Shown here in pieces: positions 1 through 58,500 of a stretch of DNA of 64,000 bases (positions within the stretch are counted from its first letter, which is position 1; each line of letters opens with the position of its first letter). A model generated the notes under the pieces. It searched no databases and was not told where the DNA came from. It was given only the letters and a program-made list of their open reading frames with translations. The position numbers were made by a program, and so were the translations under genes. The DNA comes from Acanthosoma haemorrhoidale (Eukaryota; Arthropoda; Insecta; Hemiptera; Acanthosomatidae): the NCBI GenBank assembly GCA_930367205.1, contig OV884009.1:90603189-90667188 (forward strand), given 5' to 3'.

Positions 1-234
1 CTTCCCAACCAATACAATTTACTTTGATAACACGTTTCAATAAGCTTTCATCAAATACTGCGCAAATAAATAATTTGTGTTTGACATTGTATGAGAGTAC
101 TTGCTCGCATATAAGATTAAAAGACAAATTATTTAATACATAGTATTGAATAAAAAACGTAAAAACTACTACCTTAATAAATTATATATTGATACTTTTA
201 TTCATAATTTTTTACATTTAATAATACACTTGTT
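1..234. other. AT-rich flank, nothing recognised
   Basis: No open frame, repeat end or splice-flanked exon is recognisable here. Similarity to the lingerer intron 1/exon 2 region of 55.6-55.9 kb begins only at about 235. Confidence 0.4.
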
Positions 235-477
235 TTTGACTGAAAATGCCATTTTTAATCAACAGGAATAATGACCAAGTCCCAAAATGATGAAATTTAA
301 TGTATTCTAAACTTGCATGATTTAGTATTTCTTTTAAAGCTGTATCTTCAGTTCTGGCGTCATTGAGCTATCCTCAGCTGTTCTGCAGTTGGCTAAAAAA
401 AATAATAAAAAATAATTAGAAGCTAAAACAATATATATAATGATAACAAGTATATAATGATTATTCAGAATAATTAT
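235..477 (-). repeat. Segmental duplicate of the lingerer exon 2 region
   Basis: About 240 bases align with about 55,650-55,885 in the same orientation, including intron sequence on both sides of exon 2. Examples are the shared 'cagcaggaataatgacca' type stretch and the shared run ending 'cagaataattat'. At 478 the two copies part: the 55.9-kb copy goes directly into the PIN-like relic, while this copy has about 1.1 kb of extra sequence first. Confidence 0.75.
317..392 (-). pseudogene. Broken duplicate of lingerer coding exon 2
   Basis: Read on the minus strand, this segment begins after a T-rich acceptor (ttttttag) and encodes the same start as real exon 2 at 55,731-55,811 (residues TAEQLRIAQ). 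It is 76 bp against 81 bp. The 5-bp deletion after the IAQ codons shifts the frame straight into a stop codon. The donor is also lost: real exon 2 ends CAG/GCAAGT, while here the same place reads CATGCAAGT. Flanking intron sequence is also shared with the real copy, so this is a DNA-level duplicate, not a processed retrocopy. It cannot function as the UBA-domain exon. Confidence 0.8.
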
Positions 478-1621
478 TGTCTTACCTTTCCCAGAAAACT
501 GAGCATGTTTACGTAAGTATAAATGCAATATATTTGCAAGAGAAACCTTCTTTTTTAAAGGTTGGAATCATTTTTTTATATTGGATCAACCCTTATCAAA
601 TCAACCAATTTAATTTGAAAAGGTTGCTGACTAAATTAATTTATTTGTTTACTTATGTTCGTAATATACTTTACAATAGGTATTCATTCATTTTTTAGAA
701 GTTCAGTTTGTTGTGAGCAGCCATTTTGTAACAGTGAGTCAGCCTATTTTGCCTTTTATAGAGATTTGCGTTTCGTTGTTCCTTGTTTCCTTAAGCTTCC
801 GTAGTTTCCTTTTTTTTTAAACATATTTAGTTCAAACAAAAACCATTTTAATAGTCCAGTAAAATTAGGTTTTTTTTTTTGATATAATTCAAAAAGTTTT
901 GTAACTTCGTAATATTGTATGGGAGGGTCTATAAATCTCCTGATGTATGGGTGAGGGAGGTAAAACAAGATACATTGTTTTTGTTTATTTGCTAATATCT
1001 TTCAATCTATTGGCCCTATGGGGGAAAAAACTCTCACCAGTAATAAAGGCAATTAAATTATCTACAAAAAAAAAAAGGTTAAATTTATTTTAACTCTAGA
1101 GTACATAGTTTACGAGATAATCGCATTAAAAATTGAAAACATTACATCAGCACCAGAGAGCAGCTCAACAACACTTACATTGTAGCTACTTGACTAAAAT
1201 TTAAAAGAGCGTTAATTAATGTTTTGGGCAGGTGAAATAAACAATGAACAATAACTTCAAGAAATGGCATTTTTTATTAATTAAAATCATAGAGAAATGA
1301 AAAATGCTTAAAATACAATATTATATGAATGGATAATATATTCAAGCCCCCAATCATTTTGAATCACTCTTCAACAGAAAATTTAAAAAAATGTTGATTT
1401 TTATTTCATCTTCCATTAGATGTGTTTTTTTTATCCCCTTAAAAATGACAAACTGATTATTTTCATTATATATTCTCAGTCGAATCTATTTACATCTCTT
1501 TTTTATATCTCCTGTAGCGTCACTACATTATATACAGGTTTGGTTGTTTTTTTTTATAAAAGTTATATAATTCAATACAAGTACAATGATACACATTATA
1601 CTTCACTTGTTTGAAAAGACT
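478..1621. other. Extra sequence in the duplicate, unassigned
   Basis: This stretch has no counterpart in the 55.9-kb copy. It is AT-rich with short homopolymers and no supportable ORF. It is either an insertion into this copy or the ancestral state, deleted from the other copy. The second reading fits the fact that the PIN-like relic runs further at its 3' end here than at 55.9 kb. Confidence 0.35.
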
Positions 1622-2292
1622 CTATAAGGTGATGGGGCTCATCTTTAAATAGGGCCAGCTCCTCAACTGGTGGTGGACTGTTAAAGCCATCTCCATGGCA
1701 GTAGTTGCAGGCGGAAGTGCTTGCGATTCCTGTTTTTTTCTACATCCGCGGCAGTGTTTGTACATTTGTACAACAGGCTAGTTGAACACTGACAGAAGAT
1801 AAGGTTTAATACTGCCTTAGGGATAACAGGGTTATTTTGATAGGCACTGAAGTATAACCGAGCTTACGTTTCCCAACCCTAAATATCACAAGACAGCTCA
1901 TTTCCCTGCCACAGCTGTATCAGATGAAAAGCCCATTATCAGTGTATATAAATATGCATGCGTCCCGTTATATGTGTGCGCCGCTCCTTCTGTGGGAAGT
2001 AGGGATACTAACTCTGGTCTCATGTTTGAAATGGACTTTGTGAAGGTATTAAACCTATGTAAGTTGAGTGGCGTTGTATAATGTGGAGCTCCATATATAT
2101 ATATATTCAAGAATAACTAACGCACTGCCTCTGCCACCTACTGATCAGAAGAGTAAGGGCCAAAAAACACTGAATTTACACAATACAATGACTTATGCCA
2201 CATTAACATTTTGCAGATAGCTACTTCCCCCTTCCTGTAACAAAACAATGTGTCACAGCCAGAGAATGAGAGAGCAAGTAGTATCATATATA
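1622..2292 (-). pseudogene. 3' part of a PIN/XPG-like multi-copy family relic (copy B)
   Basis: Minus-strand translation, across frameshifts, gives blocks such as SFSGCDTLFCYRKGEV, MWHKSLYCVNSVF, IYGAPH, RPELVSLLPTEGAA and a short Cys-containing tail. The same blocks occur in the same order at 55.9-56.4 kb. I recognise this pattern (FSGCDT..YRKGK, LPPTEGAA..QHSYR, FC.C..GC) from a multi-copy uncharacterised invertebrate protein family. Stops and frameshifts show it is dead. The LTR element at 2,293-6,628 splits this copy, whose 5' half resumes at 6,629. Function of the family is not established; a PIN/XPG-type nuclease fold is my inference from the acidic motif seen in copy A. Confidence 0.6.
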
Positions 2293-2534
2293 TGTAAAGA
2301 AAACACATGCTTTTCTTAAGTTTATATTTGCCGCCGCTGAGCATCTAACTATAGACACCAGATGTCAGGTCGGACAGCTGTGATAGACTGTTAACCACAT
2401 GGAAGGATTTTATTTTAATTTAGTTTTCAAAAAGAACCTGAAATACCGATATAAGGACTTTTAATGTCGTTTCTGTTGTATTTTCAGAACCGCATTTCAG
2501 TCTCTATTTCCACTAAAGGTGAAACCTCATTATA
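2293..2534 (+). repeat. 5' LTR
   Basis: Begins TGTAAAGAAAAC and ends about CCTCATTATA. By eye it differs from the 3' LTR at two positions (near 2,305, a versus g; and in 'gcattt' versus 'gctttt'), roughly 0.8%, so insertion is recent. The exact 3' boundary is blurred by the TATA sequence shared with the flank. No clear 18-nt tRNA-complementary primer site starting TGG follows directly. Confidence 0.85.
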
Positions 2535-2913
2535 AAACGACATTATCTGCAACAAATTCAGGAGAGATGGAGAAATTGAGGTTTGATTTTGCTATAAAAC
2601 CAACGGCAGATGGAAAATCAAATGTTATGTGCATTAGTCGATAGCTACGCCTGATGGACGGATTTTTGAAATACCACCCGATTTTCAACTTGCGAATCTA
2701 CATCAAGAAATCACAAACACTCCAAACTATGCCAAGGTAAAAAAATCATTAACTAAAAGACATCAAACAAGAAAAATATGGATAACCTTAACGGGGAATT
2801 TATCAAAAATATACTTAGATAATGAAAATAATTTACAATTTAATGATATCTACCTAGAGGAAAAATCAGATACTTCAGAACATAAACCTAGTGGTCAAAC
2901 ACTAGAAAAACTA

Positions 2914-4620
2914 TTGGAGAAATTTCTTGACAATAAACAAACAAAATCTGAAACAAAAAATTTAGGTAAAATATCAAAAGATTTCATGATAGATAAATTT
3001 TCGGGTAGAAGCCAAAATGCAAACCAGTGGATTGGGGTTTTTAATACAGAATGTCAACGTTTCAAAATCGAAGACGACAAAAAGAAGATTGAAATTTTAA
3101 AACATTTTCTGGAATACTCGGGTATGGAGTGGTACAGCTGCATGTTAATGAAACTTACAGTGGAATCTGAATGGGACACATGGGAAAAAAAAATTTGTGG
3201 GACTTTTGCAAACAAAGGGTGGTCACCCATTAGATATGCTCTCGCCTTTAAATATCAAGGGGGCTCATTGCTTGAATATGCCCTAAAAAAGGAAAAATTA
3301 TTGCTTGAAGTAAGGAAATCAATTGATACTGGGACATGTATAGACCTAATAGCTTTCGGATTACCTAATAATGTGGCTGATAAAATTGACAGAGCACCTT
3401 TAAAAGGAATGGAAGATCTGTACAATGAAATAGGGAAATTAGAACATCTTCTTGAGAAGAATAAATATAGCAAAAAAAGTGTTTTATATTCTGACTCAAA
3501 ATTTAAACATATTGAAGAAAAAAAGCCATGCCAAATATGCGTTGAGAAAAAAGGGAAACGATTTTACCATCCTGAGGAAAATTGTTGGTTTAAAGAGAAA
3601 AATCAAAAAGCAGCTGTGATATCTGTGAATAACTCTGAATTGGAAATTGAACTGAATGAGAAGAATCCAAAAAAACTAGAGGTGCCACCATTGATCAAAG
3701 TCAAATTGCTATTAAATGATACTTTGAAAGTTTCTGGAATTTATGATTCTGGTTCGAATGTGTCATTAATTAATGCGAAATTACTGAAAATAAAGCCAAA
3801 ACAATATACAAGTAATACACAAATAGTAAACTTGAAGACTATCAATGGTGAGAAGAAAACAAAAGGTATGATAACACTAAAAATAAAAATTTACAATATA
3901 GAGAGAGTTATGGATATATTTGTAGTCGATAATGATAACTTTAACTACCATTTTCTAATTGGTTTGGATTGTATCAAACATTTCAAATTGATACAAAATG
4001 AAGAATTAAAAATCATACAATGTAACAACACAGATAGCAAGAAAATGGCTTCAAATGAAGAGGATATAAAAAACAATAACTACAATAAAAATAGCAATTC
4101 GAATTTAACAGGTAATGATTACATTCCTGATAAACTAGGTGAACAAAATGAAGGTTTTGTTTTGTTCAATTCTGAAAAACAAGAAACTAGACACATGGAC
4201 AAATGTGAAATCAATTTCAATGAACATATTAACACAGATGAATTTGAAATTATAGCAGACCATCTAGATTTATACAAAAAAATAGAAATTGACAAGTTGA
4301 TAGAAAAATATAAACCGGTCTTCGCCACAGATAAAATTCAGCAACTAAAAGAACAAGAAAAAAGAAGAGTAAATTGGGTACAAGAAATTGAAAAAGAAAA
4401 TGACCGTTTGATAAGTGAATTTAAAAAGATTCAAGATAACAATGAAATTTTGAAATCCAATATAAAATTAAAAGTAGATAAAATTAATGATCTTGAAAAC
4501 CAAATAATGCAGAGAGTGAGTATACAGATGAATGGGAGCATCAGAGAAAGAGAAGAATCAATAAATCAGTTAGAAGTGGCTGTAAATGAGAAACAACTAT
4601 ACAACTTAGTCTTGTTAGTT
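2914..4620 (+). CDS. Gag-protease polyprotein fused to coiled-coil sequence
   Basis: This 569-residue ORF is the longest in the window. Residues 1-190 are Gag-like (YSGMEWYSCML, QGGSLLEYALKKEKLL blocks). A CCHC-type zinc knuckle follows with C206, C209, a His nine residues later and a final Cys four after that. Around residues 260-360 is a retropepsin-type protease: D278-S-G catalytic triad and the late FLIGLD block near 347-351. At 466-474 the sequence KYKPVFATDK is the usual entry to a gypsy-type reverse transcriptase. From residue 475 (nt 4,336) the polymerase is absent and Lys/Glu-rich coiled coil follows to the stop. Gag coding also runs upstream of this ATG in the same frame and, before a stop at about 2,638, in another frame from an ATG at 2,567. 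The true Gag start is therefore probably 2,567, with one frame break. Confidence 0.85.
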
Positions 4621-6385
4621 TGAATGAAAAGTTAAAAGAAAAAAGTAAAGAGTGTGAAGAAATGTACTCCTCCCTGGAAAAGAAAGCTGAAAGTATTTTT
4701 AATTTGGAAAAACTTCTAAGTAAATGTGCTTCAGAAAATGCTATTTTAGAAAAGGAAGTACAAAGTTTAATAGAACCAGTCCTATTAAATCTTAATAATT
4801 TTAACCATAACATAAGTTTAGAAAATGATGTAAATTATAAACTTCAAATTGAACAACATAATATGATGCTAGATAATCAAGAAGCTAACTTGAAAGAAAA
4901 GATAACTCTTCAGAAAAAAAACTGAAACAAACACAAAATCTGTATCTACTGATTTTGATGAAGAGTTTGAAATAGGGCAAATTATTGAAGGTTCATTAAA
5001 TAATTATTTAGTAAAGATAGAATTATTGAACAGTAAGATAGTAGAGTTAAATTCCCAACTGAAACAGCAAAGTGATAAATTTGATGAAGACTTTAAAAAT
5101 CAAAGCAAATTGATAGAAAGTTTACAGGAAGAATTGGATTTAGCTAATGGATTAAATGCTGAATTAAAAAATAATAATGCTGTAATTCTAAAACAGAAAG
5201 AAGATGCAATGCAGCAGTATAGCCTTATTGAAAAATTGCAAGTTGAATTAAATGAACAAAATAATGTGTTAGAGAACAAAAAAGTATTGTTTTTAAAGGA
5301 CAAAGAAGCACTCGAACAATTACTAGCAATTCATTCAGAAAATGAGGAATCATTTGTTGATCATTTGAGAAAGGAAATTGAAATTCTTCAGAATGAACTG
5401 TGTGAGGAACAAAATTTAAAAATACAAATGCAGAAACAAGTTGAGAAAATGCTTTGTGAATTGCATTGCATCAAGAATGAACTAGCTTCTTCTGAGGAAG
5501 CTAGAGATAACTTACTTGAGCAGAAAATTGAAGCTGAAAAATATAAAGAAGAAATTAAATCCATTACTGAGGAGTTGGAGCATTGCCAAATGAAAATCAA
5601 GACATTAATTCAAGAAAAAGAAAACTCATTGTCAGAGCACTTTAACAATTTGAAATTAGAAAAAGAAATAAATTCACTGATTACAGCTAAATTGGAACAA
5701 ACAAGCCTTGAGTTATTAAATTTAAAGAATGAAAAAGAACTTTTCATGAAGGAATATCATGAAAACATGCAGTCTGAAAGAGAAATGTGCTCTATTCTAA
5801 ATTCTGATTTATTAAAAATGAAGGAAATAAATATAAATCTAGAAAGTGACTTGCAATTCATAAAGAAAGAACTTGGTGAAAAAGAGGCTCAGCTCGAAGA
5901 AATTAAAGCAAATTGGCATTTGGAAAAGGCTGAGCAGTTAGAAGAGGAATGTGAGGTATTAAATGGAGATATTAAGTATCATGAGAATGTAATTGGGGAT
6001 TTGTTTGAAAAAAATAAAGTGCAAGAAGAAAAGTGGATCAGCGAAAAGAAAGAATTGGAAAGGGAATGCTTAAAAAGCAAGGATCTACTTGAAAAAAATT
6101 AATACTCAGGAGAATGTAATTCTTTCATTGCGAACAGAAATAGAAAAGTATGAAAAAATTCTTAAAAAAGTTATGGAAGATAAGAAAGCAGTTGAGTTAG
6201 TAAAATTGGAGCTAGAAGGAAATATTGTTGAGTTAAAAAGAAACCTAAACTCCTTGAAAAATCAAGAAATAAGCTGTGCCGATGGAATCAAACAAGATAT
6301 AAATCACTTGAAATTAGAACTAGTCAGAAAACATAAGATTGAGGTTGTTTTTTTGTTTTTTTTGTTTTTTTCTAAAGGGGGGTAG
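4336..6385 (+). pseudogene. Captured long coiled-coil coding sequence inside the LTR element
   Basis: From 4,336 to about 6,345 the translation is almost pure coiled coil: repeated E/K/L/N/Q heptads with blocks such as LKEQEKRRVNWVQEIEKEN, EKLKEKSKECEEMYSSLEK, ELNSQLKQQSDKF and EIEKYEKILKKVMEDKK. It occurs in four consecutive frames (to 4,620; 4,620-4,925; 4,926-6,102; 6,089-6,385), and coiled-coil character continues across each switch. Two switches lie at A-runs (about 4,913-4,920 and 6,093-6,099), so they may be slippage or sequencing errors. The composition matches long cellular coiled-coil proteins (golgin, CENP-E or kinesin-tail type), not a retroelement enzyme. No introns are evident, which fits capture from an mRNA. 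The parent gene cannot be named from sequence alone. Confidence 0.75.
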
Positions 6386-6386
6386 A
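6374..6386 (+). promoter_or_regulatory. Polypurine tract of the LTR element
   Basis: The run aaaggggggtaga lies directly before the TG that opens the 3' LTR, preceded by a long T-rich stretch. This is the position and composition expected for the plus-strand primer of reverse transcription, and it supports the LTR boundaries chosen. Confidence 0.75.
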
Positions 6387-6628
6387 TGTAAAGAAAACGC
6401 ATGCTTTTCTTAAGTTTATATTTGCCGCCGCTGAGCATCTAACTATAGACACCAGATGTCAGGTCGGACAGCTGTGATAGACTGTTAACCACATGGAAGG
6501 ATTTTATTTTAATTTAGTTTTCAAAAAGAACCTGAAATACCGATATAAGGACTTTTAATGTCGTTTCTGTTGTATTTTCAGAACCGCTTTTCAGTCTCTA
6601 TTTCCACTAAAGGTGAAACCTCATTATA
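6387..6628 (+). repeat. 3' LTR
   Basis: Direct repeat of 2,293-2,534 with about two substitutions. Beyond it the sequence (tatatttgaggccc...) resumes the interrupted PIN-like relic. Confidence 0.88.
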
Positions 6629-7140
6629 TATATATTTGAGGCCCTTCTGCTGCTATTATTGTGATGAAAATACATGAGTTTCTATTTTCCCTTGGCTTGG
6701 TTTGTACTCAGAGTATCTACCTACCAGTCTGAATAATCAGAGTGTCAGCATCATTATGACTTTGCTGACATGAGACTCCTTTGTCATTTAGATTAGAGGA
6801 GAGGATGTGAATCAACTTTTTCTTGTTGTTCTTATTTGAGAGAAACTGATTTTGGCACACTGATGACAGTGTGTTCTTCAAAGTGTTGTCAACTGACGTT
6901 TACATTAAGCACCATCTATTTTGTTCAGCTACTTTGGTGCTATTTAAAGGTTCAGTGTATCCATCGGAAACAATTTTGCAGCTATGGCACAATAGTTTCT
7001 TAATGTAATTTATGTAGGTGTTGCAAATATCTTGTATAGTTGATATTTTCTTCCACACCACCTTATGCAGCAAGGAAGCCACCATCCACATGCATTGTTT
7101 GTTGTTGGAGATCTATTATTTCATTGGACTGAAATAACAC
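6629..7140 (-). pseudogene. 5' part of the PIN/XPG-like family relic (copy B)
   Basis: Aligns with about 56,430-57,010. The minus-strand translation contains [20 protein letters not shown] and KVAEQNRWCLM, matching [17 protein letters not shown] and [11 protein letters not shown] in copy A, plus the upstream LLHKVVWKK block. Frameshifts interrupt it. Together with 1,622-2,292 it forms a single relic opened by the LTR insertion. Confidence 0.65.
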
Positions 7141-10100
7141 CTAAAACATCCTCCCGAGCAATATTGCAAAACTTTAAGAATTATGTCCCAAAATCTGCAT
7201 AATTTTACTGGACTATAAAGAGCATAAAATGTACCATATTTTCTGCCCAGTATAGGCCTCTGCATAATTTTAAATAAACAATCAGTGTCTTGTATTCCTT
7301 TGCTAAATCTTCTTCACCTTCTTTATCTTTTTCCTATTCATCTGTTAAACTTTCTTTATCTTTTTACTCTTTATTTGTCAAACTATCATTGAAAGAAAAA
7401 AAACATTTTTTTTTTACAGATAAACTTATTTTTTACTTTTTAGTCTTAAATCTTGTATGATGTTTTATTTTACTCAGTTTTATTATATTGGATGCAGGGG
7501 ACAGATTTAATGATTTGCAAACTTCACCTACTATATTAAAACTAGTATCTTTGCCTACAAAGGATTTTCCAATATCTTTTTCTGGTTGGTAATCTGTCTC
7601 CATGTCACTTGTTTTTTCTTCTATAACTACACTAAAAAGATTTATATTACATTAAACAGGGGGGATTAAATTAACAGGAACATTTTGCTTTTTTTGTAAA
7701 TGTTCAGGAAATATTTCTCTTAAACCACTTCTTATAGGCTTTTTGTGAAAACTTGAGGACCACTATAGTTGCTTCCCAATATATGATAGTTGCAGATAGT
7801 TTCTACTTCACTTGATAGTTGAAGTTTCAATAATAATAGTTCACTTTCCCCCAATCACTTAGTTTTTATACTTCCTTAGAAGTGATAAGCTGGTAATGAT
7901 AAGCTGGTAATCAGGTTTGTGACACAATTCGCCAGCTAATAATTCTACAGAGCACTCCATAATAGTAATAATTTTGTCACATAACTCAAATTCATACTAC
8001 TTTATCCCACCTCCTGGAATGTTCAATTGTGATTTGATGAACAGTAAGGTTCTGACGTTCACTACAAAACCAACAATACCACCAGAAAAATATGAAGAAA
8101 TTAATCTAGAAGTACAATACCAAAGCGAATCAACTCGTTCTTTCAAGAAATGGGAATCAATGTGAAAAATATCAAGGCTGGCCAAGTCTATAATAATTGA
8201 CTCATTAGGAATTTTATATATGTGGCTAATAAAACCGAAGTTCATTAAATATCTTAAGAGAGACCAAAGCGTTATGTCATTAATATTATTAATCAATGAT
8301 GTTAGAGTCAAATGTTTATTACCTTTTTTAAAAAGAAGAAGAAGGTGGAAAAAAGATGTCATTCATAGATTGATTACTACACAGTGTCACAGCAATCTAT
8401 CATTACAATAAAGTATTTCGCTCCTATACAGTACCAACTAGCAGCCCCAAGAGAACAGAGAGAAAAAAATCATAACATCATAATACACTGAAAAAGAAAA
8501 AGGAAAAACAAAATGACCTTAGCACAGATTTATTATCATTCATTGTTCATTAGGCAGAATTTAAAAAAAAAAAGTACAGATAAACAATAGTACCTGGTAG
8601 TAGTAAGTCCTTCTTACATAAGAAAAATAATATAATACTTTATAATTTACAAATACTTTAATTTTACTAAAAAATATAAATAGATAGTTTATGAAATAAT
8701 ATTTAAAACATATCAAAGGATCATAACACTACAGCAGGTCAGAAAGATTGTGATTCAAGCTAGGTATAACCTATTTCCGAGTGCTTGTCAGATTCAAAAT
8801 TAACTCCAAAATATTACATTGCTGCTGTTATCCACTCAAGCCATTCGGAATCATTTGTGAGAGGAAAGACTTCAGATTACATTCTTTTTATGGTACCAGG
8901 AGCAAAAATAACAGGTCACCAGTAACATATAAGAAAAAAATGGAGCTTGTCCCTGGGATAGATAACAGCCTGTTGCACCATTATGTTTATGGACTGGATG
9001 TCTATGGAATCCATCCACTAACTCTGACTAGTGTGTCATGGCCTCCACGATCACTCTTCACAGTTATAATAGCATTTTGCTACTTTGTTCACTTCCTAAA
9101 TGCTAGTAGGGATCACACCTCACACACTACACCATTCTGGTAACAAAGCCTTTTGGGGACTTTACTCTCTATCATCCTAGTGTTCTTCAGCCTATCCCAA
9201 CCTTATTACTTTTGTAACATCTGGTTCCGTAGAGTTTTTTGTATGTTCTTCCCTCTTGCTCTCGCCAATGCTAGTTCCATCACTGATTCATCTAAGAACT
9301 TGTCTCTTAGAAATTATTAGTGACTTTTTGTTCTCCTTGGTGATTATCTTTGCCTTAAGAGATAAAGGCTTACATCAAGAGGGGACTTATTAATGTCTTA
9401 TTTAATAGTAATTTGGTGTATCCAGACCATCATCTTAGTCCTGATAAACAGAATGCAATAATTTTACATTTTAGTTTGGCTAATATTTCATTGTTAAATG
9501 ATGCGAAAAATCTTTAACAGAATATTTGTTATTTTAAAAAATTTGTGAAAGTTGCTATAACCAAGATGTTACATTCGGTATAATATGATTAATAGGATTT
9601 TTACTATCTTTCCTATGGCATTGTTATTAATAATTTACTCTATCCAATTTTATACCCATGTACCAATGTTTTATGATAAAAAAAGGAGAATTGTGGAAAA
9701 CATTACGTTGTAATTCTCCAAAATTTGTGAGTTTTAGACTAGTTAGTTAGTTTGCTGGCTGTATACTCTTATCTTTTTATAAGTTTTATCTCAATACTAT
9801 TTTTAATGTCATGCAGAATCAATTGCTTTATTTTATTATTAAAAAAAGTTGATGTGCTTAATCGATCCAAGACAGTTGTTTCAATATATTGTTATTATTT
9901 GTTTGTATATTTATATTTGTTAATTGTGTTCAGTCAAAATAATTTATTCTGTATGTAATAGAAAAATTACTATGAAATAAATTTGTGATTTGTACTTGCC
10001 AGAAAATGTTTGCTTAAGTGAAAGCCTCTTATTAAGATGCCCATACAATTCATTCCAGATTGTACAATCTGAATAGTTGACTAGAGGATACCATAATAAT

Positions 10101-12957: not shown

Positions 12958-13405
12958 TTAGTCTCTGAGGAGGATTATAGGGATGAGTGAGATACAGTGT
13001 GATGCCTGTGCTATGGAATTGGGGTGGTTGGATGGGTTACTATGGGATTTCATGAACTTGGAAGGGATGAATTCAAGAATGTAAGGTGTATTAAGATCAT
13101 TACGAAGGGTTTTGTTACTGACGTAATAAGGGGCATTTACTATTGTCCTCAGGACTTTTGATTGCAAGGATTGGATACGCTTGATGTTCGACATTTTAGC
13201 TGTCCCACATAGCTCTATTCCGTATGTCCAGATTGGCTTAAGTATAACTTTGTGGATTAGTAATTTCTTTTCTATTGAGAGATGGGATGTCCTTCGAAGT
13301 AGTCTGTACAGTTGTCCAAAGCGTCTGATAAGTTCTTGTCTTTGTAGCCTCGTGTGTGGGTTCAATGTCAGCTATTGTCGAGATGGAAGCCTAAATAATG
13401 ATATA
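12958..13405 (-). mobile_element. 5'-truncated Jockey-type LINE, reverse transcriptase C-terminus
   Basis: A 135-residue minus-strand frame begins NPHTRLQRQELIRRFGQLYR and contains KLLIHKVILKPIWTYGIELCG, NIKRIQSLQSKVLRTIVNAPYY and TLRNDLNTP. These blocks mark the end of Jockey-clade LINE ORF2 proteins (ILKPIWTYGIQLWG, QSKxLRxIxNAPWYVSN). Similarity reaches to about 13,405 upstream. The rest of ORF2 is missing. Its 3' edge is only about 25 bases from the TATA box of the secreted-protein gene on the same strand. Confidence 0.82.
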
Positions 13406-25300: not shown

Positions 25301-28300
25301 GATATAATACTTTTGAATTCCGAGAATTAAAATTTGCCATTTTATAGTCATGTAAAGGAGCTCTACTTCAGTTCTTTTACAGAAGAACAATGTATATTTT
25401 TATTAAGTAATTTTAAATTAAAAATTGAGTAAATTTTATTATTAATTTATATCCAAGGTTGTGTTGTTTTAAAGTACACACACATAGTATAAGCCACCAG
25501 AGTCTAATCAAAAGACCAGGAAATTCCAGAGTAAGATAAATCACTAATAGTAAGATACCTTGGGGAGAAGGGGAAAGCATTATATGTTTGCGATGAGATC
25601 AGTGAATGGAGGACAGACCTGTTTAGGGGGAGACATATGGGAAAGAATCACATGCTGCAAGAATTCCATGTACGACCTGGCTATTCCAGATAGCCCTTTA
25701 TAAGAATTAAGAACCATAACTACAAGACTAAATTATGTAAATTAAACTGGTTTCAAATTAATTAACATTGTTTTAATTAATGGAATTTTAAAAGTACACA
25801 GAATGGACCTAGAGCATCTCGAGTACCATACAATAAAACCATATATAAAAATAAAAATGTTATGTATTGTTTGTGATGGCTAGTTAGTAAAAATTAGAGC
25901 CATATTATAAAAAAATGTATTGATTAAATGAATATTAACATTAATTATTTAAATGGAATAAAAAAATACTGTCATAATATACATACATAGCCCGGTCTTG
26001 AGTATAATTTATTACCTTTTCTTTTTCTTTCATAAACATTATTAAATGATGCTGCCAAATGAGAAAAATAGTTCTATAACTTAGAAGTTAATTATAAATA
26101 AAATTGTGAGAATTGAATTCTAGGCACCAGTAGGATAGGCATGTAATATCAATGAATCGAGTGTGGGATTTTATAAATAAATACTATCATAATAAGCATA
26201 TAGGCAGCACACCCTCTTTCATCTAAACTAATTGAAACAGATAGCATTCGAATCACCAAAATAAAAAAAAAAGTATCAATTTATAATTTTATTCAGATTT
26301 TTTTTTTTGACTCGAGAATAATTTATTATCCTAGTTTCTTTTTATTTCATAAAGATTATTAAATGATAAAAATAGTTCTTAGAAGTTAATTATAAATATA
26401 ACATAACATTGTGAGAATTAAATTCTATTCTAGGCATCATTAGGACAGGCAGGTTATGTCAATGATTGAATGTGGGACCATGAAATAAGACAGAATTTAA
26501 ATAAGAAATAAATTCAATAATACTTTATAGAATAAATTAAAGTGGTGAGAGATTCTTGAATATTAAACAATGAAAACAGCTCTTAATATGTTGACATAAG
26601 AGTCAAATTTAAGGAAATAAGACACCAGACAGTAGCTCTCTCATTTAAGAAAATGCATAAGGGAACAATATACAGTAAAAGCTCTTTAGATCTACTGATT
26701 TATTTAAAAAAAGGAAATATAATTCCTCTTAAACAGCCTTGGGTCTAACTGGATGTCTCAGGTGACTGAATGCATGTCTGGCTGAATGTCAATAGCTTAA
26801 AAAACTCTGAATACTTAGGTTCATCAGAACACGCATTCACTTATAACGCAGCATGGCTACTATATGTACTTGAAAAACTTGCAGACAAAGTTACGAAAAA
26901 AGGGATGAGGGCGATAAACAGATGAAAAATATCTGCTGTTGTTCAAATTGCCTTTAATAGTTTAATCTTGATTTTAAATTTAATGATGTCAATTAAATGG
27001 ATTAATTAGTTGGTAGCATCCTCTCAGAAATTTATAAGAATAAGTCTTTATCTTCATTAAACTATATAGGGATCCCTCATATTAGGTACAGTAAATAGAA
27101 ACCAGATAACCTTTGGACTTTGTAGTTCAGATAATATCATTTTCTAGCCAGTACACTTTATATAGTCATGAAAATTAAAATAAATTTTAATTATTACAAA
27201 TTAACAAAAAAAAAAAAAAATTATTGCTAAAATTGGGACTTGAGATGTCCTCAATATCTAATCAGGTCTAACATCTGAGCTATCATACCTTGAATGATTG
27301 CCTTCCCAATATAAAGTCTTCTTACCCGACTTGATACTGGGGAGGCCCAGTTCGAGTCCCGATTTTGCTAATAATTTTTTCTTTGGTCATTAATTATTAA
27401 TAATTATGAATAAAGACCTGCACCACAATAACAATTCCTTATTTGAAATAGATTTTAGCTATCTCCATTTTAGGAATTGTCCAAGTGAAATATATGGTAG
27501 TTATCTAATAACAAACATTATATAGAATACTTTATTCTCATTTGAAAAGACAATTACTCAGTTCTGTGTGTAGCCTTAAAAATTCACATCAAGGTTTACA
27601 CTCTTTCCTCCCATTATAGTCGCCAAGCCAAGTTAAGTTACTTAATTCCTATTGTATCCGATATAGAATTTTACAGTTGGATTGGTAATTGATTTACACT
27701 TGATCGATAAAAAGTACATGTCTTAACTTGTAAATCATTAAATGTCTTTATCAATATGTTAAGGCTAAGAGGACAGACATTTACAAATATTTGCACAAGG
27801 TACTCTTAATGTTGTCAGCCAACACCTCTATCTATTACCTGATGCAGAAATACATTGTATATGTTAAAACGTCCACAAATAGATCCGATGAAAATAAATA
27901 AATATATAACTGAATAGAAACAAAAATGAGTATTAATTAGATTAAATAAGAATTATAATGGAAAAACGTACAAGATCAGAATAAAATAGAAGTATAATTT
28001 AGATATCTTCCATTAATGAATTAAGAAGTTATTATTTATACAAAATCTTAGCAGATAATAAGAAATGTGTGAATATTATTAGAATATAATGTGTTACCTT
28101 AGAGAGCGCGGAATGAGATTTTGAAGAGTAAATATTTGCAGCTATGTCAGATGTTGTCGAGGGGTTAGCTGTCTGGGTAGGTTGGACTTTCGGGCCAGTT
28201 GAAGTGGATGTCTTAAAATCAGAGCTACCAGTAGTGGTCCCTTGATTGTTTTCATAAATCCCACCATAGTTACCAGAAAAATTATTAGGACCTTTGCCAT

Positions 28301-43300: not shown

Positions 43301-46300
43301 GGACAAAATCATGTCTGAAATTGTAATTAAAAAAAGTTATAAAGGAAATAAATTGATATTATTTAATACAGTACACATTAAAATGCATCATGCATAGATT
43401 TGCTCAGAATAACAAACATTACGTTAAATAATTCAATTTAAGGATAATACGCTTCATTAGTCAGATATAATAATATACATATAATGTATATGACTATACA
43501 TTAGTCATAAATAAATAGCATCTCACTTGGATCAGATGGTTTTATTATTTACTCTTTGAACATAAAGGATGCGTACGCTTTGAACCCAAAAGACACATAT
43601 TTCTTGTCGAGTCATTCTCTTGAGGCATTTTTAGGATTAATTTGTTTGTAAGGTCACTAGAATGACTTTAAACCAGTTATTTGCTATTTTGTTTTTTGCT
43701 TTAAGCAGTTACAAGAATAAGGATGTGACAATTTTTGTTTAGCTCTGTACATTAAACATGTTAACAAATTTTCTTCAGTAAAACAATAATTGATAGTGAA
43801 ACTTATAAGTCAGATAATCAAATTTAATTAGAATGCAAAAAAGTTAAAACAGGAATTTCAAAAATAAGTTAATCTTCTTTTATATTATAAAAGTTAATAA
43901 TTTCTGTCCCTCATTGTTGCTATTGACATTGTCTTCGATACAGAACAGTAATAACTAGGTTATTTCCAAACCTTAATTTCAGTTTTCTAGACTGTACTCA
44001 GTAATTCTTTACATATACATAAGCATCCACTAGTTATGTGCCAAAAATGTAATGGTCCATTCATCATATATGCTATACATTTGAGAAATGCTAAGTTTTA
44101 ACCTGGATTCTTATTACTAATTGAATTAAACCAAATAAATGGCTACTCCTGCAAACAGTGCTATACTTAAAAAGTAGGTCAGTTCATAAGAACTAAACAA
44201 TCTTGTATTATTTACTTTGTATAATTTAAGTTTTGAACATAGAAGATCATGGATTTTCACATAGACTTACCTTTTTCTGATATCTTAGGATCTTCTTTTT
44301 GTTGACTAGTCATTAACATTGGGGTTCTATCTGATCTTGGAGATATCATGATTAAATTTGATCCCATTGTAGGAGATCTAACACTAACAGGAGAGGTCAT
44401 AACTGAAAATAAAAAATATACCAACTATATGTTAAAAATCAGTGGTATAATCTAGCACAACTTAATTGAAAATGATAAATTTAGCCTTGATAGTGGACAC
44501 CAGTCTTCCCATTCTATGAAAAACGTTCTTACTCTGCAGGAATATATATACATAACTGCCAGTAATTTGTTCCAAACAATCGAGAAAAACAAATTAAGAT
44601 TTCATCTTCATCCAAATAAATTTGGAGCTAATAGCAATTGTAGATTAGAGACAGGGGGGGGGGTTACTTTGTTTATATGTATTTCTGTGATTCTCCATAA
44701 TTGTATTTTCATCAAAAGTTAATTAGTGAAATTCAAGTTCTAGAATAAAGGTTCGAAATTTCATAACAATTGGATAACTTTTACGACCACCATAATGCTA
44801 GATACAGATGAAAGACAACTCTACATGTATGTATGTTACCTGTCAAATTTATTGCATTAGAACCTTGATAGCTTTTATATAATATTAATAAAAAAATAAA
44901 GAGATTTCTTGATACTTAAATGGCGGTTAAGGGGTTCTATAGATATAAGTATAGGAATGACAATTACAACTACCTCAGTAAAGTTATTAAAACAAGAATG
45001 AGAATAGGTACATTATTGAATTGACAATCAAATAAGTTTGACCTGGTCTCAAGAATGATGATGCCATTAGCTACATTCACAATTTAAATATAAATTGTTT
45101 TTATTTATTTTTTATACCCAACACATTTGGCTTTCTGTTCATATAAAATAAAAATTGGAAGGAAACAATTTATCGGTTTATTATGACACCTTCAAAAAGA
45201 AATTTCTATTGAGATCAAGTAAAACAACATTAAAATAATACAATAACAAAACAATTCTGCATTTGGGGGAAAAAATATACTGGAAGGATTTGGACTCGAA
45301 CCTGGTACCTCCCTAAAATCCGATTGGGTGGTCTACCAATTAAGCTAGTCCTGTACGAGTTGAGACCTTGACAATATGAATCTTCTTTGGCTAAACTTTC
45401 ACAATGACTCTTAAGTAATGCACCACCACTGTGGGCCTTAAGAATCAAGTGTAACATGTAAATAATAAAACAAATAATATTACCTGGTTCAGGATGAGTT
45501 CCGTACGGCTTATGAAATGGAATTGAAAGTGAATTCAGTTCAGAATTTTTATTTAGACTATTTCCTATTTTTCCTGAGTTAATATCCACTTGTAATTGAT
45601 TCTTCTGCTGTAAAATAAAAGCATGTGAGTTTAATTTTATTTCATTTTCACAATTATAATTAATAAATCTGAGTAGACTAATGTTTTGAATAAACCTGTA
45701 GCACTGTTAACACGTTCCGTGCGTTGCGGGGTCAATTGACCCCGTGTGGAACTTTCCACTAGTGCTGAGGTAAACTTTCAAAAATGCTCGAACCTGTTTC
45801 AGTTTTTGATTTTTTCAAAGGGTTGAAACTAATATGGCTATATGTTATAAACTTCAATAATCTCTCAAAATAGAACAGGGTTAAATGACCCCGTGCTACT
45901 TTTCTCGAAAAATGACGAGTCACTCACTACCCTCTACTTTTTGGATCAGCAACCACCAATGCATGGCTTATGTTTAACGAATGCACAGGGAAATCCGTAC
46001 CATATCTGCAGTTCAAGGAGGTATTGTCAAAAGCATTAGCCCAGGAAGCAGAACAAGAAGTGTTGGAACGGCCCAGGACACCTAAACGCATCCACACGCT
46101 AGTAGCTCAAGACGTTGAGAGGAAGAGGAAAAAATGTTCAGGGTGCTACGAGAAGCTGAGGAAAACGATGACCTCAAAAGAAGCTGACAAAAAAGTGAAA
46201 AAAGTTCGCACATATTGTGAGGAGTGCTCTACGAAGCCAGCTCTTTGTCTTTCATGCTTTAATGATAAACACGCATCAATGCATTAAACATAATTCATGT

Positions 46301-46527: not shown

Positions 46528-49500
46528 CCGAACCTCACAAAAAAATTAAACTCATTCCCTGTGTCTAAAATCTCATAAAATTTAATTTCAAGAAGGGAAA
46601 AGGTGTCTTTATTTGAAAACAAAAATAATTTATTTACGAGTACAATTTCCATTAGGTTAATGAACTTTTGAATAAATCAATTAATGTCCTGCTGCTGTGG
46701 TATACTGACCTAAACCTATGAAGCGGGAAAACAATTGATTTTTCCTAAATTAATCAATTTTCAGCAAGCTGAATACGTTTTAACTAAGGAAAGAACACGG
46801 GGCCGATTGACCCTGTGACGCACTTGTGGATAGTTACTGCACGGGGTTAATTGACCCCGTGTCGCACTTGTGGATGATTACGGATTTTTCTATTAGCACT
46901 GAACGTGTTAATACCAGAGAAACAAATCTTAATATAAAAATTTCAATAAAAGCACTACATAAGTTATATAGTAATTTTATTTTATTGTACGAGAACACAG
47001 TTTAAAACATCTCTACATTCATTGGATATTGCCAGCTACCTGTGTAAGAAGTAAGGAAAATTCTGGTGTAAAAAAAGGGGTATTTGTTACTGATAACTAC
47101 TTCAAGCTCCTGTTATGATTGTTTTTATGATCTGCAAAAACTTTCAATTCTCTTGTTCTTGGATTTTTTTAAAAGCTTTTGATCCATCATATTAACTTCT
47201 AAAATGTCCGAAACCTCTCCTTACCCAATAGATTTTTTTTGATATCAGCATTGTATTCATAGAAACCTTTCTCAACCCTATATTTATCTTTGGCTCGTTT
47301 ATTTATTACAGTTTTCTAATGCCAAGAATATAAATATTGGTGTACAAGGGTGGTCTGAAAAGTTTCTGACCTAACAAAGATACAAGACGTTTTTTCAGAA
47401 ATTTTATTTTTATTTTTTATAGTTTCGGACATATAATGGTGTATCCAAGTTTCATCCACAGTAATTAATCGGCGCCAAACCTCGGATTTATTGCACCTAA
47501 ACTGCGCCAACAGAGCATTGGAAATGTTTATTCGAACACGTTTTTGTCTAACGTGAGCAAATGCGGCACCCAACGCGTGGACAGCTTTCTCATCTCTAAA
47601 TGTTGATTTAATATGTGACAAACACGTACTTTTGACATGTTCATAATTTCTGCTATATCTCTCACTTTAATTCAGCGGTTGTTTAGCGCCATTTGGTGAA
47701 CTTTGGCGATGTTTTCGTCGGTAGTTGCAGTTTTTGGACGTCCCGAACGTTCATCGTCTCCCAAGCTCTTACAACCACGTTAAAATTCAGCTGCCCAAAA
47801 TTTCACTGTGGTAAATAATGGTGCAGAGTCCCCATACACAGAATCCAACTCATCTTTGATTTGCGTAGGCGTATTGCCTTTCAAAAACAAATATTTAATG
47901 ACAGCTCGATACTCGATTTTGTCCATTTTCATAAAAACACTCACATCGACTCACTCAAACGACTGTTACACAACAACTGCGCGTCCAAAATGGCTGAAAC
48001 TTTGGTGAGTAACTGTCAACAGATGAACAACGAAATTCACTAGCGTTTATTTACGACTGCTGCTATCTTCAGGTTGAGGTCGGAAACTTTTCAGACCACC
48101 CTCGTATGAAAAGGAGGAAGATAGGTTTAACAACTATTTATTTATTTGGTTAAGTTATTTGATATTCACAATGAGAACAGTTTATTATGTGGTTTAATCA
48201 TAAGAAAACTTACGTCAAAATCATCGGCAGCAACATTGTTACTGCCCACAAGCAGTGAAGTAATGACAGAAGGTGGTGAATTTCCAGAGCCTGAAGACGT
48301 GTAAATCTGACTGTTTGCAAGGGAGCCAGTATATTCTTCGTTATCCCAATCTTCTATAAACAAAATTTACAAGTTTTACAGAACATAATTAGCTTTAAGT
48401 ACAATTTTGTTAAGTGATGTAGGAATTAAAACTGGGGTTTATTATGTATATATAAATAATATGTTGTTATAATCATAAAATAAATCTGTTTATAATAATA
48501 GTCTTGAACATTGTCATAATTGTTAACAGTTTGAAAGTGTAACCTCTCCCTTTCACTGACTTTACTTATTATTAAACAAATAATTTTTATAAGTGATTGA
48601 AAAATAATTAACGATAATTTGCTATTTGTAGAGTTTCTCTACATTTTTTTAAACCTATGTCAGCCAATGAGACCCAAATATACTTATCTACCTCTTCATC
48701 TATCCCTCAGATCTCCTAATTACTTCCTTTAAAATCAAAGACATTAACCTTATTTGCTCAGGACCAAGATGAATAAATTGAATTTAAACCAAATAAAATT
48801 AAAATCAATTATCATAGTTTCCAAACCCTATATCCTTCTACTTTTTACACTGAGTCCTTTCCAATACTCTAGATAAACCCCTGCAATGAAATGAACATGT
48901 TTTTCAAATGACCTGACATTTTATATTTGTTGTATATTATTTTTTTTTCCTTTTTCGTTTTTCTAAAACAACTCCGTAAATGAGTTGAAGGTTTTTGGAA
49001 GGAGATTGGCTTTGCTTGGGTTGATGAAAAAGAGTTATGTTTTTATGAAGTTAATTCATGGACCTGTATCAGGTCTGTGGTGAGGAAGAGGTTGATGTGG
49101 ACTGTTTAATTTAAGACAGTTGGCGAACTGGATATTTATATACATGCATAAATTGGCGAACTTATTTAAAATTACTCGGGGTTAAGAATAAACTCACAGT
49201 ACAATGATCATCTGTTATTATAAAGAGTATGCATAAGCCAGACTTAGGGCCTTGGAATTGACATTTCTGTTAATCTCAATGATAGAAATAAAATCTTTGC
49301 ATGTTAACATTTTTTTTATGGTTATTATTCAAGATATTAAACTTTTAGACAAATGCATGTTTGTCTTAGGATCCCCCACTCAAGTTACTGAAAGGGTATA
49401 TTTGGCTAGCATCTCCCAGTTTACTACTTCTTAATTGATTGATTTATATGCTTATGGGAAAGGCATACCAATTAACTTTCAAATCGTAAGTGCAAACTAT

Positions 49501-55500: not shown

Positions 55501-58500
55501 TTAACTAGTCCATAAAATGTACCCACATCATTCATGTTTTCACTATGTGTATTTATACAAGGAAAATGAGATTAAATAAATTATAACTTTAAGTGTATTA
55601 ATGACTCCAATGAGGACTTAATAAGTGTGTAATTGGGGCAAACTTGTATTTAAATGAAACTGCCATTTTTAATCAGCAGGAATAATGACCAAGTCTCAAA
55701 ATGATGATCTTTAGTGTATTCTAAACTTGCCTGCTTTAGCTTTTCTTTTAAAGCTGGATCTTCAGTTTTGGTGTCAATGATTTGAGCTATCCTCAGCTGT
55801 TCTGCAGTGGGCTAAAAAAAAAAAGAAAAAAAAATTAGAAATTAAAACAATAATACAGTATATAACGATTATTCAGAATAATTATATACAGGCAATAATA
55901 GTGGCAAGCGGCAGTGCATGTGATTCTTGTTTTTTTGTACATCCACAGTCAGTTGTACACTGACAGAAGATAAGGTTTAATACTGCCTTAGGGGCAACAG
56001 AGTGGTTTTAATAGGCACTAAAGTATGACATAGCTTACGTTTCCTAAACCCAAAGATCAGGAGACAGTTCATTTTCCTGTTACAGCTGTATCTGATGAAA
56101 AGCCTGTATGAGTGTTGCATCGCTACTCCTTCTGTGGGAAGTAGGGATGCTAACTCTGGTCTCATGTTTGAAATGGACTTTGTGAAGGAATCTAATCTAT
56201 TTAACTTGAGTGAAGTAGTATGATGTAGAGCTCCATTTTTATACTCAAGAACAACTTATGCACTGCCTCTGCCACCTAATGATGTGATGAGTTTGGGCTA
56301 CAAAACACTTAATTTACACATACAATGACTTATGTCACGTTAACATTTTCCAGATAGCAACTTTCCCCTTCCTGTAAGAAAATGATGTCACAGCCAGAGA
56401 ATGAAATGAGCAAATTGTATGATATGTTTGTATGCTATTGTTGTGATGAAAATACTTGAGTTTCTACTTTCCTTTGACCTAGTTTGTATAAGTATATATT
56501 TTGATCTCAAGGGGTTAAGGCAGTGAGAAGAACAAGTATATCCACATCCTGTCCAACAATAGAAATATTGTCGCTATCACTTAGAGTATCTATCTAGCAG
56601 TGTGAACAATCTGAGTGTCAGAATCATTATGACTTAGCTGACATGAGACTCCTTTGTCATTTAGTTTAGAGGAGAGGATGTTAATCAACTTTGTTTTGTT
56701 GTTCTTATTTGAGAAAAACTGATTTTGGGGCACACTGATGACAATATGTTCTTTAAAGTGCCTATCAACTGATGTTTTCATTAAGCACCGTCTATTTTGT
56801 TCAGCTACTTTGGTACTGTTTAAAGTGTCAGTGTATCCATCGAAAACAATTTTGCAGCTATGGCACAATAGTGTTTCTCAATGTACTTTATGTAGGTGAT
56901 GCAAATATCTTGTATTAACGATTCCTTCTTCCACACCACCTTATGCATCAGGAAGCCATCAGCCACAATTGTTTGTTGTTGGAGATCTATTATTTCAACC
57001 CATTGTTCAAATATTTGATACAAAGCACTTGGGGAGCCATAGGGGCTGGTAGGTAACCCTTACCTATATGAAAAGAGGTGGAATTAACTCATCCATGTTA
57101 GTGAATAGCTGCTGCCAGGAGCTCTACATGGCCACTTATACAACTAATTCTTATGACACCCTAATATTCCCCCCAATTATCTACTAAACTAAGGAATCAT
57201 AAAAAAAAATTGAATAGGACTTTTTTTTGTGGGAAAATTTATTTTTTCTATTTTTGGTAAGAATATTTTTTTCTGTAGTACCAATAGATTATGAGATATT
57301 AATAAAAAAAAAAAAAAAAAAGGTAACTTCTTTCACCCCCTATCCATTAGGACTTTTGGTATGTTCATTAGTGTCAGTTTATCTATCGAAAAAATTTCTG
57401 TAGCTCTTGTACAATAGTGTTTCGTAACGTACTTTATGTAGATGTTGCAAATATCTTGTTGGTTGAACTAAATATCTTCAAAAACAATGAATCATAAATT
57501 TTAACGCACACCTCGGTAAGATGCTAAATAGGATGACACGCCAATACAAAATGCTCCCTCACAAAAAATCTGGACATTAAACAAAATAATGAATACCTAT
57601 TTTTAACTCTCTGAATATAGTAAAAACATAGGTAAAAAATGAATAAATTTTGTTAGCAACCATCATTGGTCGATTTGTAATGGATTAGCCCTATTCCCAC
57701 ATAAAAATTAGCTTATTGAAGGTTAATAAACTTTTTATATTCAATTAAGAAAAGTATAGTTTGTTAATGTAAATGAATAATATATTTTCAGTGTAGGAGA
57801 ATTTGTTTTATATAAAAATTGGGGCCCCTCTTTCATATACTTTCCTTTGATTTTCTTGGCCATTATAGTAAGTTTGGTTTATGTGTAATTGAATAATTAA
57901 TACAGTTAGACCTGTAGATGATACAAATTACAAAAAGTATTTACAAAAAGTATTGAAATGTCAAGAACTATAAGACTTGATTCTCAGAATACAGGTAATT
58001 GGGTCTCTTTTCATATCAAACAGGATTGTCGTTTTCCAGAAAGCCCTGAAGTAGGATAAGCCAATTTAAGAAAGCTAGATATATTTCTATTTTTAAGAGA
58101 ACATTTATAACTACTTTTCATATAGTAGCCCTCTTGGAATACTAAAGTTTCTATATATAATCGAATACGAAAAAAATAAAAAATAAAATAAATAATGATG
58201 AAGCATATAAAGTACACTTATCATAAAAAAATTAATATTTTATTTTAAACCATGTTGAACAGACAGATTTACAATCCTTAAAATTTTTAATTAAAATGTT
58301 ACATGCACTCAGGTGAAAACTGTGAGGCAGTAAGACACAACACCCTTAAAAAAAAAAAGATCGTGTCCTTAGTGAATGAACAATTAACAAACATGATAAG
58401 TTCATGATGCTTGTGAGGAACAAGAACACTACTGTGATGCGCTGAATTAGGGAAAAACATTATTTTATGTTTGTTTCTGCTGGTTTTTATATTCCTTAAA

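What the first reader, a model, noticed from the sequence alone, without database searches (positions are those of the whole stretch)
2293..6628. LTR retroelement that exchanged its pol gene for a cellular coiled-coil coding sequence
The element has everything a mobile LTR retrotransposon needs in cis (matching LTRs, purine tract, Gag, zinc knuckle, protease). At the exact point where reverse transcriptase should begin (after KYKPVFATDK, about 4,335), the reading frame passes into about 2 kb of long heptad-repeat coiled coil. This resembles the gag-oncogene fusions of transforming retroviruses, but in an insect retrotransposon. The LTR difference of about two in 242 bases means it moved recently, presumably with borrowed enzymes. 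A Gag-coiled-coil fusion could act as a dominant structural protein, or as an intermediate of gene retroposition.
Basis: partly seen in the sequence, partly recalled or inferred. Interest (0 to 1): 0.92.

Follow-up and report, generated by a model that had tools for sequence, protein, structure and literature searches.

The report
Retrotransposon carrying a captured coiled-coil gene
An insect-type LTR retrotransposon copy lacks its reverse transcriptase and integrase genes from an exact point on and carries in their place 2 kb of coiled-coil coding sequence, likely copied from a host gene's messenger RNA by a template-switching accident during what was probably a recent jump.

Summary
The structure is real. 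Two LTRs (2293-~2530, 6387-~6624; 2 differences in 238) enclose gag, protease, 2.0 kb of coiled-coil code and a purine tract, inside a dispersed repeat with an unoccupied relative at 56289-56673. Listed Gag relatives are 49-80% identical; the named ones are insects. All 120 listed relatives of the protease segment carry reverse transcriptase; 117 of 120 go straight on into RT where the window switches (KYKPVFATDK), and no later Pol piece of 40 tested relatives matches the window. The coil is open over 95, 101, 392 and 84 codons with three frame changes and no intron-like gap, sense to the element and open at both ends, like an internal mRNA fragment. Best reading: LTR-mediated retroposition, two template switches into a host mRNA using an intact sister element's enzymes. 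Gene capture of this kind is reported for maize Bs1, mosquito, Drosophila and Plutella. The parent gene was not found and the own-genome search did not complete (18 attempts), so cellular origin remains inferred.

The parts
2293..2530 (+). 5' LTR (3' limit uncertain by up to 4 bases: the match runs to 2534)
   Evidence: direct repeat with 6387-6624, 2 of 238 differ
2567..3700 (+). gag; listed relatives are 363-386 aa; frame broken near its N terminus; short zinc knuckle near the C terminus
   Evidence: 285 homologues at E<=0.01 among 7992 candidates (capped), best 120 listed, 49-80% identity; alignment A1; lengths; frame break seen
3703..4335 (+). protease and the linker up to the start of RT, running on from the Gag frame
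   Evidence: PF00077 20.8 bits, cut-off 20.7; relatives of this segment
4335..4336 (+). 5' switch point, protease-linker to coiled coil; relatives continue here into RT (YDVGTV...)
   Evidence: 75 of 120 alignments end at residue 566-567 of the 2638-4620 frame; 117 of 120 relatives read ..[DENS][KRTQ]-YD.G
4336..4623 (+). coiled coil, first open stretch, 95 codons, in frame with the protease
4590..4925 (+). coiled coil, second open stretch
4906..6102 (+). coiled coil, third open stretch, 398 codons
6074..6340 (+). coiled coil, fourth open stretch; no stop before the return to element sequence
6341..6386 (+). T-rich stretch and purine tract (AAAGGGGGG, 6374-6382); the exact 3' switch point lies at or near its left edge
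   Evidence: read; relatives' DNA not available to set the limit
6387..6624 (+). 3' LTR (match runs to 6628)
1984..2292 (+). left flank, part of a dispersed repeat
   Evidence: 1984-2296 matches 56126-56432 at 85%
6625..7123 (+). right flank, same dispersed repeat
   Evidence: 6706-7123 matches 56579-56997 at 89%; joined flanks align to 56289-56673
56289..56673 (+). related copy of the repeat without the element (unoccupied site)
   Evidence: it lacks about 22 bases next to the insertion point and has about 90 extra bases further right

Best explanation
This is a Ty3/gypsy-type LTR retrotransposon copy in which everything from the start of reverse transcriptase to near the purine tract is missing and 2.0 kb of sense-strand coiled-coil code stands in its place, probably the result of LTR-mediated retroposition of a host mRNA fragment. 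Inferred course: an intact element's particle packaged its own RNA and, by chance, a host mRNA for a long coiled-coil protein. Minus-strand synthesis began on element RNA and passed the 3' LTR and purine tract. It then jumped to the middle of the host mRNA (about 6340) and jumped back to element RNA at the end of the protease-linker segment (4335). It finished on gag and the 5' LTR. The sister element's integrase inserted the chimera into a TA run of a resident repeat. The copy has since picked up small frame changes, or the assembly has indel errors, and as assembled it makes no intact Gag-coil protein. Shown: LTR pair, Gag and protease homology, exact loss of RT onward, coil coding, integration into a repeat. 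Inferred: host origin, mRNA template, template switching, age.
For: Structure: LTRs, gag, protease, purine tract. Relatives: 120 of 120 listed carry PF00078 (131 found); 75 of 120 alignments end at residue 566-567; 117 of 120 have RT sequence (YD.G) right after the switch-point motif, and later Pol pieces of the 40 relatives tested gave 0 hits in the window at E<=0.001. In the nearest one, P0121, RT lies at 285-445, RNase H at 508-637 and integrase at 719-884, the Ty3/gypsy order (order recalled). Coil: 398-codon open run against a null maximum of 136; heptad signal. The pieces overlap at each frame change with no intron-like gap, as a spliced template would give. The coil is sense, open at both ends, with no poly(A) at its 3' end (longest A run 4 in 6290-6345) and no flanking repeat above chance, so it looks like an internal mRNA fragment and not a LINE-type nested insertion. 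One integration: unoccupied related site, LTRs 99.16% identical. Precedent: microsimilarity-driven template switching during LTR reverse transcription (PMC5408686, section 6 read); Plutella Pxyfem (PMC9674220, passages); maize Bs1 (PMC7264820 and PMC13317346, passages).
Against: No parent gene found: coil piece 4924-6099 had no hit at E<=0.001 among 7997 scored candidates (capped list) of about 216-686 aa; a longer parent would lie outside that range. The host genome could not be searched. Without the parent, switch-point microsimilarity and loss of introns are untested; a single long exon would look the same. 44 of 120 alignments run past residue 567, 35 of them to 574-576 and 9 to 595-631. 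In the 5 long over-runs printed (P0123, P0133, P0136, P0202, P0227) the relative's residues there are RT, not coil. Counting the Gag/protease boundary, there are five frame irregularities in 4.3 kb, three of them with A7-A8 runs; this could mean an error-prone assembly. The protease match is barely above its cut-off.
Confidence: 0.76

Rival explanations
1. The coil belongs to the element: an established non-autonomous family whose members all carry Gag, protease and coil and move with the enzymes of a pol-bearing helper.
For: Recent integration with LTRs and purine tract intact; the coil is in frame with the protease at the 5' switch, which has a one in three chance by accident.
Against: No other copy of coil or LTR in the window; no listed relative of the protease segment lacks RT (120 of 120 have PF00078), though candidates were limited to about 364-1157 aa; frames are broken. 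Copy number in the genome is untested.
Confidence: 0.12
2. Post-integration change: a normal element inserted, then a coil retrocopy or genomic segment landed in it and the pol segment was deleted or converted.
For: Any DNA-level rearrangement could give two clean junctions (inference; no call supports it directly).
Against: No match to later Pol pieces of 40 relatives anywhere in the window, no poly(A) at the coil's 3' end, no flanking repeat above chance. LTRs are only 0.8% apart, leaving little time for two events.
Confidence: 0.06
3. Assembly artefact: the coil is a mis-joined piece of a host gene.
For: Several one-base-scale frame changes, three of five at A7-A8 runs, suggest imperfect reads.
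Against: Two independent wrong joins would be needed, one of them exactly at the protease/RT boundary, inside an element bounded by near-identical LTRs in a resident repeat that continues on both sides.
Confidence: 0.05

Closest known systems
Maize Bs1 (pieces of a plasma-membrane ATPase and two other host genes inside an LTR retroelement)
   Same: LTR element holding host coding segments; as I recall it also keeps Gag-type sequence and lacks a working RT (recalled; the passages seen, PMC13317346 and PMC7264820, confirm the captured gene pieces only).
   Different: Plant; three parent genes identified. Here one coil segment at the protease/RT boundary, in an insect-type family, parent unknown.
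LTR-mediated retroposition in metazoans (Tan et al. 2016, not held; seen only as cited in PMC5408686 and PMC9674220)
   Same: Partial host mRNA copied together with an LTR element, explained by template switching; reported in mosquito, zebrafish, chicken and Drosophila.
   Different: Parent and microsimilarity could not be tested here.
Pxyfem in Plutella xylostella (PMC9674220, passages)
   Same: Insect; partial host cDNA joined to gag sequence of LTR retrotransposons, explained by template switching.
   Different: Multicopy, W-linked and functional through small RNAs; LTR retrotransposon remnants only. Here one complete LTR-to-LTR copy seen, no known function.
Acute transforming retroviruses with gag-onc fusions (recalled)
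   Same: Pol replaced by a host coding segment behind gag; depends on a helper.
   Different: Those are infectious and spread. Here no envelope gene was seen, the frames are broken and spread is untested.

Membership tests
Ty3/gypsy (Metaviridae-type) LTR retrotransposon | Pair of LTRs | tested here: met
Ty3/gypsy (Metaviridae-type) LTR retrotransposon | gag and protease homologous to such elements | tested here: met
   the nearest relative P0121 has the RT, RNase H, integrase order
Ty3/gypsy (Metaviridae-type) LTR retrotransposon | RT, RNase H and integrase present | tested here: not met
   later Pol pieces of 40 relatives give 0 hits in the window; of the 120 listed relatives 120 carry RT and 96 the integrase core PF00665. 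It is a defective derivative, not an autonomous member.
Ty3/gypsy (Metaviridae-type) LTR retrotransposon | Purine tract before the 3' LTR | tested here: met
   AAAGGGGGG at 6374-6382
Ty3/gypsy (Metaviridae-type) LTR retrotransposon | tRNA primer site after the 5' LTR | not tested
   no obvious site in 2531-2566 by eye; nothing computed
Ty3/gypsy (Metaviridae-type) LTR retrotransposon | Target-site duplication | tested here: inconclusive
   both flanks are TA repeats, so its length cannot be set
LTR-mediated retrocopy / gene transduction | Foreign coding segment between element sequences inside one LTR pair | tested here: met
LTR-mediated retrocopy / gene transduction | Segment derives from a host gene | tested here: inconclusive
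   no homologue found in a limited length range; own genome search unanswered
LTR-mediated retrocopy / gene transduction | Introns of the parent absent | not tested
   parent unknown; the segment shows no intron-like gap
LTR-mediated retrocopy / gene transduction | Microsimilarity at switch points | not tested
   needs parent and an intact sister element's DNA
Established non-autonomous LTR family | Several copies sharing the replacement | not tested
   one copy in 64 kb; genome not searchable
gag-onc transforming retrovirus | Intact gag-host fusion frame | tested here: not met
   frame changes in gag and in the coil

The most novel reading that the evidence does not exclude
The chimera is an active helper-dependent element: in the living genome its Gag-protease-coil frames are whole (the breaks being read errors), it moves in sister particles, and it spreads a host coiled-coil domain fused to a capsid protein, an insect counterpart of gag-onc retroviruses.
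Probability: 0.06. Interest if true: 0.78.

Novelty: new member of a known kind. Interest (0 to 1): 0.45.

Why it matters
Template switching between LTR element RNA and host mRNA is a proposed route for RNA-based gene duplication in insects. Here both LTRs, both edges of the foreign piece and an unoccupied related site are present in one copy, so switch points and age could be read directly once the parent gene is known. It also shows an exact exchange of the enzyme genes for unrelated code, the same arrangement as in transforming retroviruses (recalled).

Tried and rejected
Coil relatives: no hit at E<=0.001 among 7997 scored candidates; none in viral contigs (13 stretches matched a pattern, 0 confirmed) or in prokaryote genomes (8 matched, 0 confirmed), so no viral or bacterial source was seen at close identity. 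Pfam gave only sub-threshold matches for the coil pieces. PDB gave one chance-level match each for two coil pieces (E 0.012; E 0.099) and none for Gag-protease. Gag in viral contigs: 1 stretch matched, 0 confirmed. A nested LINE-type retrocopy was rejected for lack of poly(A) and flanking repeat. A parent within the window was rejected: the only other tblastn match is 28.6% over 56 aa, E 0.061, at 26644-26811. The look of 1810-1840 recalled an rRNA motif: no rRNA match at E<=1 over 1-7500. In one search the row 'prot_linker' was read in the wrong frame (25 stops) and is not used. A paper search for five terms on an insect Gag/coiled-coil capture gave 0 papers; this does not show absence from print.
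Full report
What was checked. Searches read the stretch directly. Two direct repeats, 2293-2530 and 6387-6624, differ at 2 of 238 positions; the match runs on to 2534 and 6628, and because the target is a TA run the last bases and the duplication length cannot be fixed. Between them lie gag, protease, about 2.0 kb of coiled-coil code, a T-rich stretch and the purine tract AAAGGGGGG (6374-6382).

Integration. The left flank 1984-2296 and the right flank 6706-7123 match one dispersed repeat at 56126-56432 (85%) and 56579-56997 (89%). With the flanks joined, they align with 56289-56673, which lacks the element. So 2293-6624 entered that repeat as one unit. The related copy lacks about 22 bases next to the insertion point and carries about 90 extra bases further right, so it is a relative of the empty site, not the allele itself.

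The element's family. Gag relatives: 285 proteins at E<=0.01 among 7992 scored candidates (capped), best 120 listed, 49-80% identical over about half of the query. The 120 Gag relatives are 363-386 residues long and 83 end in -PKN. The relatives' Pol is a separate protein that begins MPPLI in 26 of 120. In the window the Gag frame runs on into protease, and it is broken near its N terminus. In the nearest Pol relative, P0121, RT, RNase H and integrase follow in that order, which is the Ty3/gypsy order (recalled).

The exchange point. Searching residues 356-661 of the open frame 2638-4620 (protease, linker and first coil stretch) gave 131 proteins at E<=10 among 4510 candidates. 120 were listed; all 120 carry PF00078, reverse transcriptase, and 96 also the integrase core PF00665. 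Candidates were limited to about 364-1157 aa. Of 120 local alignments, 74 end at residue 566 and 1 at 567, the K of KYKPVFATDK; 4 end at 574, 31 at 576, 9 at 595-631 and 1 at 461. In the 10 relatives printed, including 5 of the 9 long over-runs, the residues at or beyond the end are RT. In 117 of 120 relatives the motif is followed directly by YD.G; the other 3 did not fit the pattern and were not looked at. Pieces of Pol after this point from the first 40 relatives gave 0 tblastn hits in the window at E<=0.001. So the break lies where RT begins, and nothing recognisable of RT, RNase H or integrase is left. Near its C terminus Pol reads like YHITKLSPV in 87 of 95 relatives longer than 900 aa.

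The coil. It is open over 95, 101, 392 and 84 codons (pieces as used; the stop-to-stop stretches are longer and overlap), with frame changes within 4590-4623, 4906-4925 and 6074-6102. The longest open run is 398 codons; 500 order-2 Markov sequences reached at most 136. The heptad score was reached by 0, 3, 0 and 4 of 200 shuffles in the four pieces, and by 133 of 200 for Gag as a contrast. The open stretches overlap at each frame change, so no intron-sized gap lies inside. The coil is on the element's sense strand, has no stop before the return to element sequence at about 6340, and no poly(A) there. That is what an internal piece of a longer mRNA would look like. Two of the three coil frame changes and the Gag/protease boundary contain A7-A8 runs, so decay and assembly error cannot be told apart here.

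Parent gene. Not found. One search covered candidates of about 216-686 aa only, viral and prokaryote collections gave nothing, and the window's own genome could not be searched in 18 tries. Cellular origin rests on the coil being long, intron-free code unlike anything seen in the element's family. This is the main weakness.

Mechanism. Reverse transcription of LTR elements in particles that also hold host mRNA can switch templates at short shared words and yield partial host cDNA between element sequences (PMC5408686, section 6 read whole). Such retrocopies are reported for mosquito, zebrafish, chicken and Drosophila (same paper, passage, citing Tan et al. 2016, which I could not open). In Plutella the W-linked Pxyfem repeats are explained the same way, with a shared ATTT at the switch point (PMC9674220, passages). 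Maize Bs1 holds pieces of three host genes (PMC13317346, passages; also PMC7264820, passages). Two switches explain this copy in one cycle, with enzymes from the intact RNA in the same particle. This is inference. The in-frame 5' junction has a one in three chance by accident and is no evidence of selection.

Age. Two LTR differences in 238 are 0.8%; at recalled insect rates this is of the order of a few hundred thousand to a million and a half years. It is an inference.

Verdict. Real, well delimited, probably a recent LTR-mediated retrocopy fragment that stands in place of the enzyme genes; a new member of a known kind. The broken frames argue against a working Gag-coil protein as assembled.

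Noticed in passing
228-7123 and 55642-57466: A dispersed repeat of about 1.8 kb occurs twice in the same orientation, its matching pieces 82-89% identical; the LTR element sits in the first copy.
   Followed up: partly
3656-3690: Relatives' Gag mostly ends in -PKN (83 of 120) and their protease lies on a separate protein; the run of A before CTAG here recalls the A-rich frameshift sites of retroelements (recalled), yet in this copy the Gag frame runs straight on into protease.
   Followed up: partly
2567-3700: Gag is 73-74% identical to copies in a hemipteran (Daktulosphaira) and a moth (Helicoverpa), which seems high for a fast protein and may mean horizontal spread of this family among insects.
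   Followed up: no
12958-13371, 45916-46287, 47316-47666: Fragments that look by recall like a non-LTR reverse transcriptase end, a piggyBac transposase end and a mariner transposase; Pfam gave no match above its cut-offs for any of the three.
   Followed up: partly
26644-26811: Weak coil-like match to the last coil piece, 28.6% over 56 aa, E 0.061; probably chance.
   Followed up: no
7100-7210, minus strand: Sub-threshold match to snoRNA SNORA9, 23 bits against 85 needed, E 0.22; probably chance.
   Followed up: no
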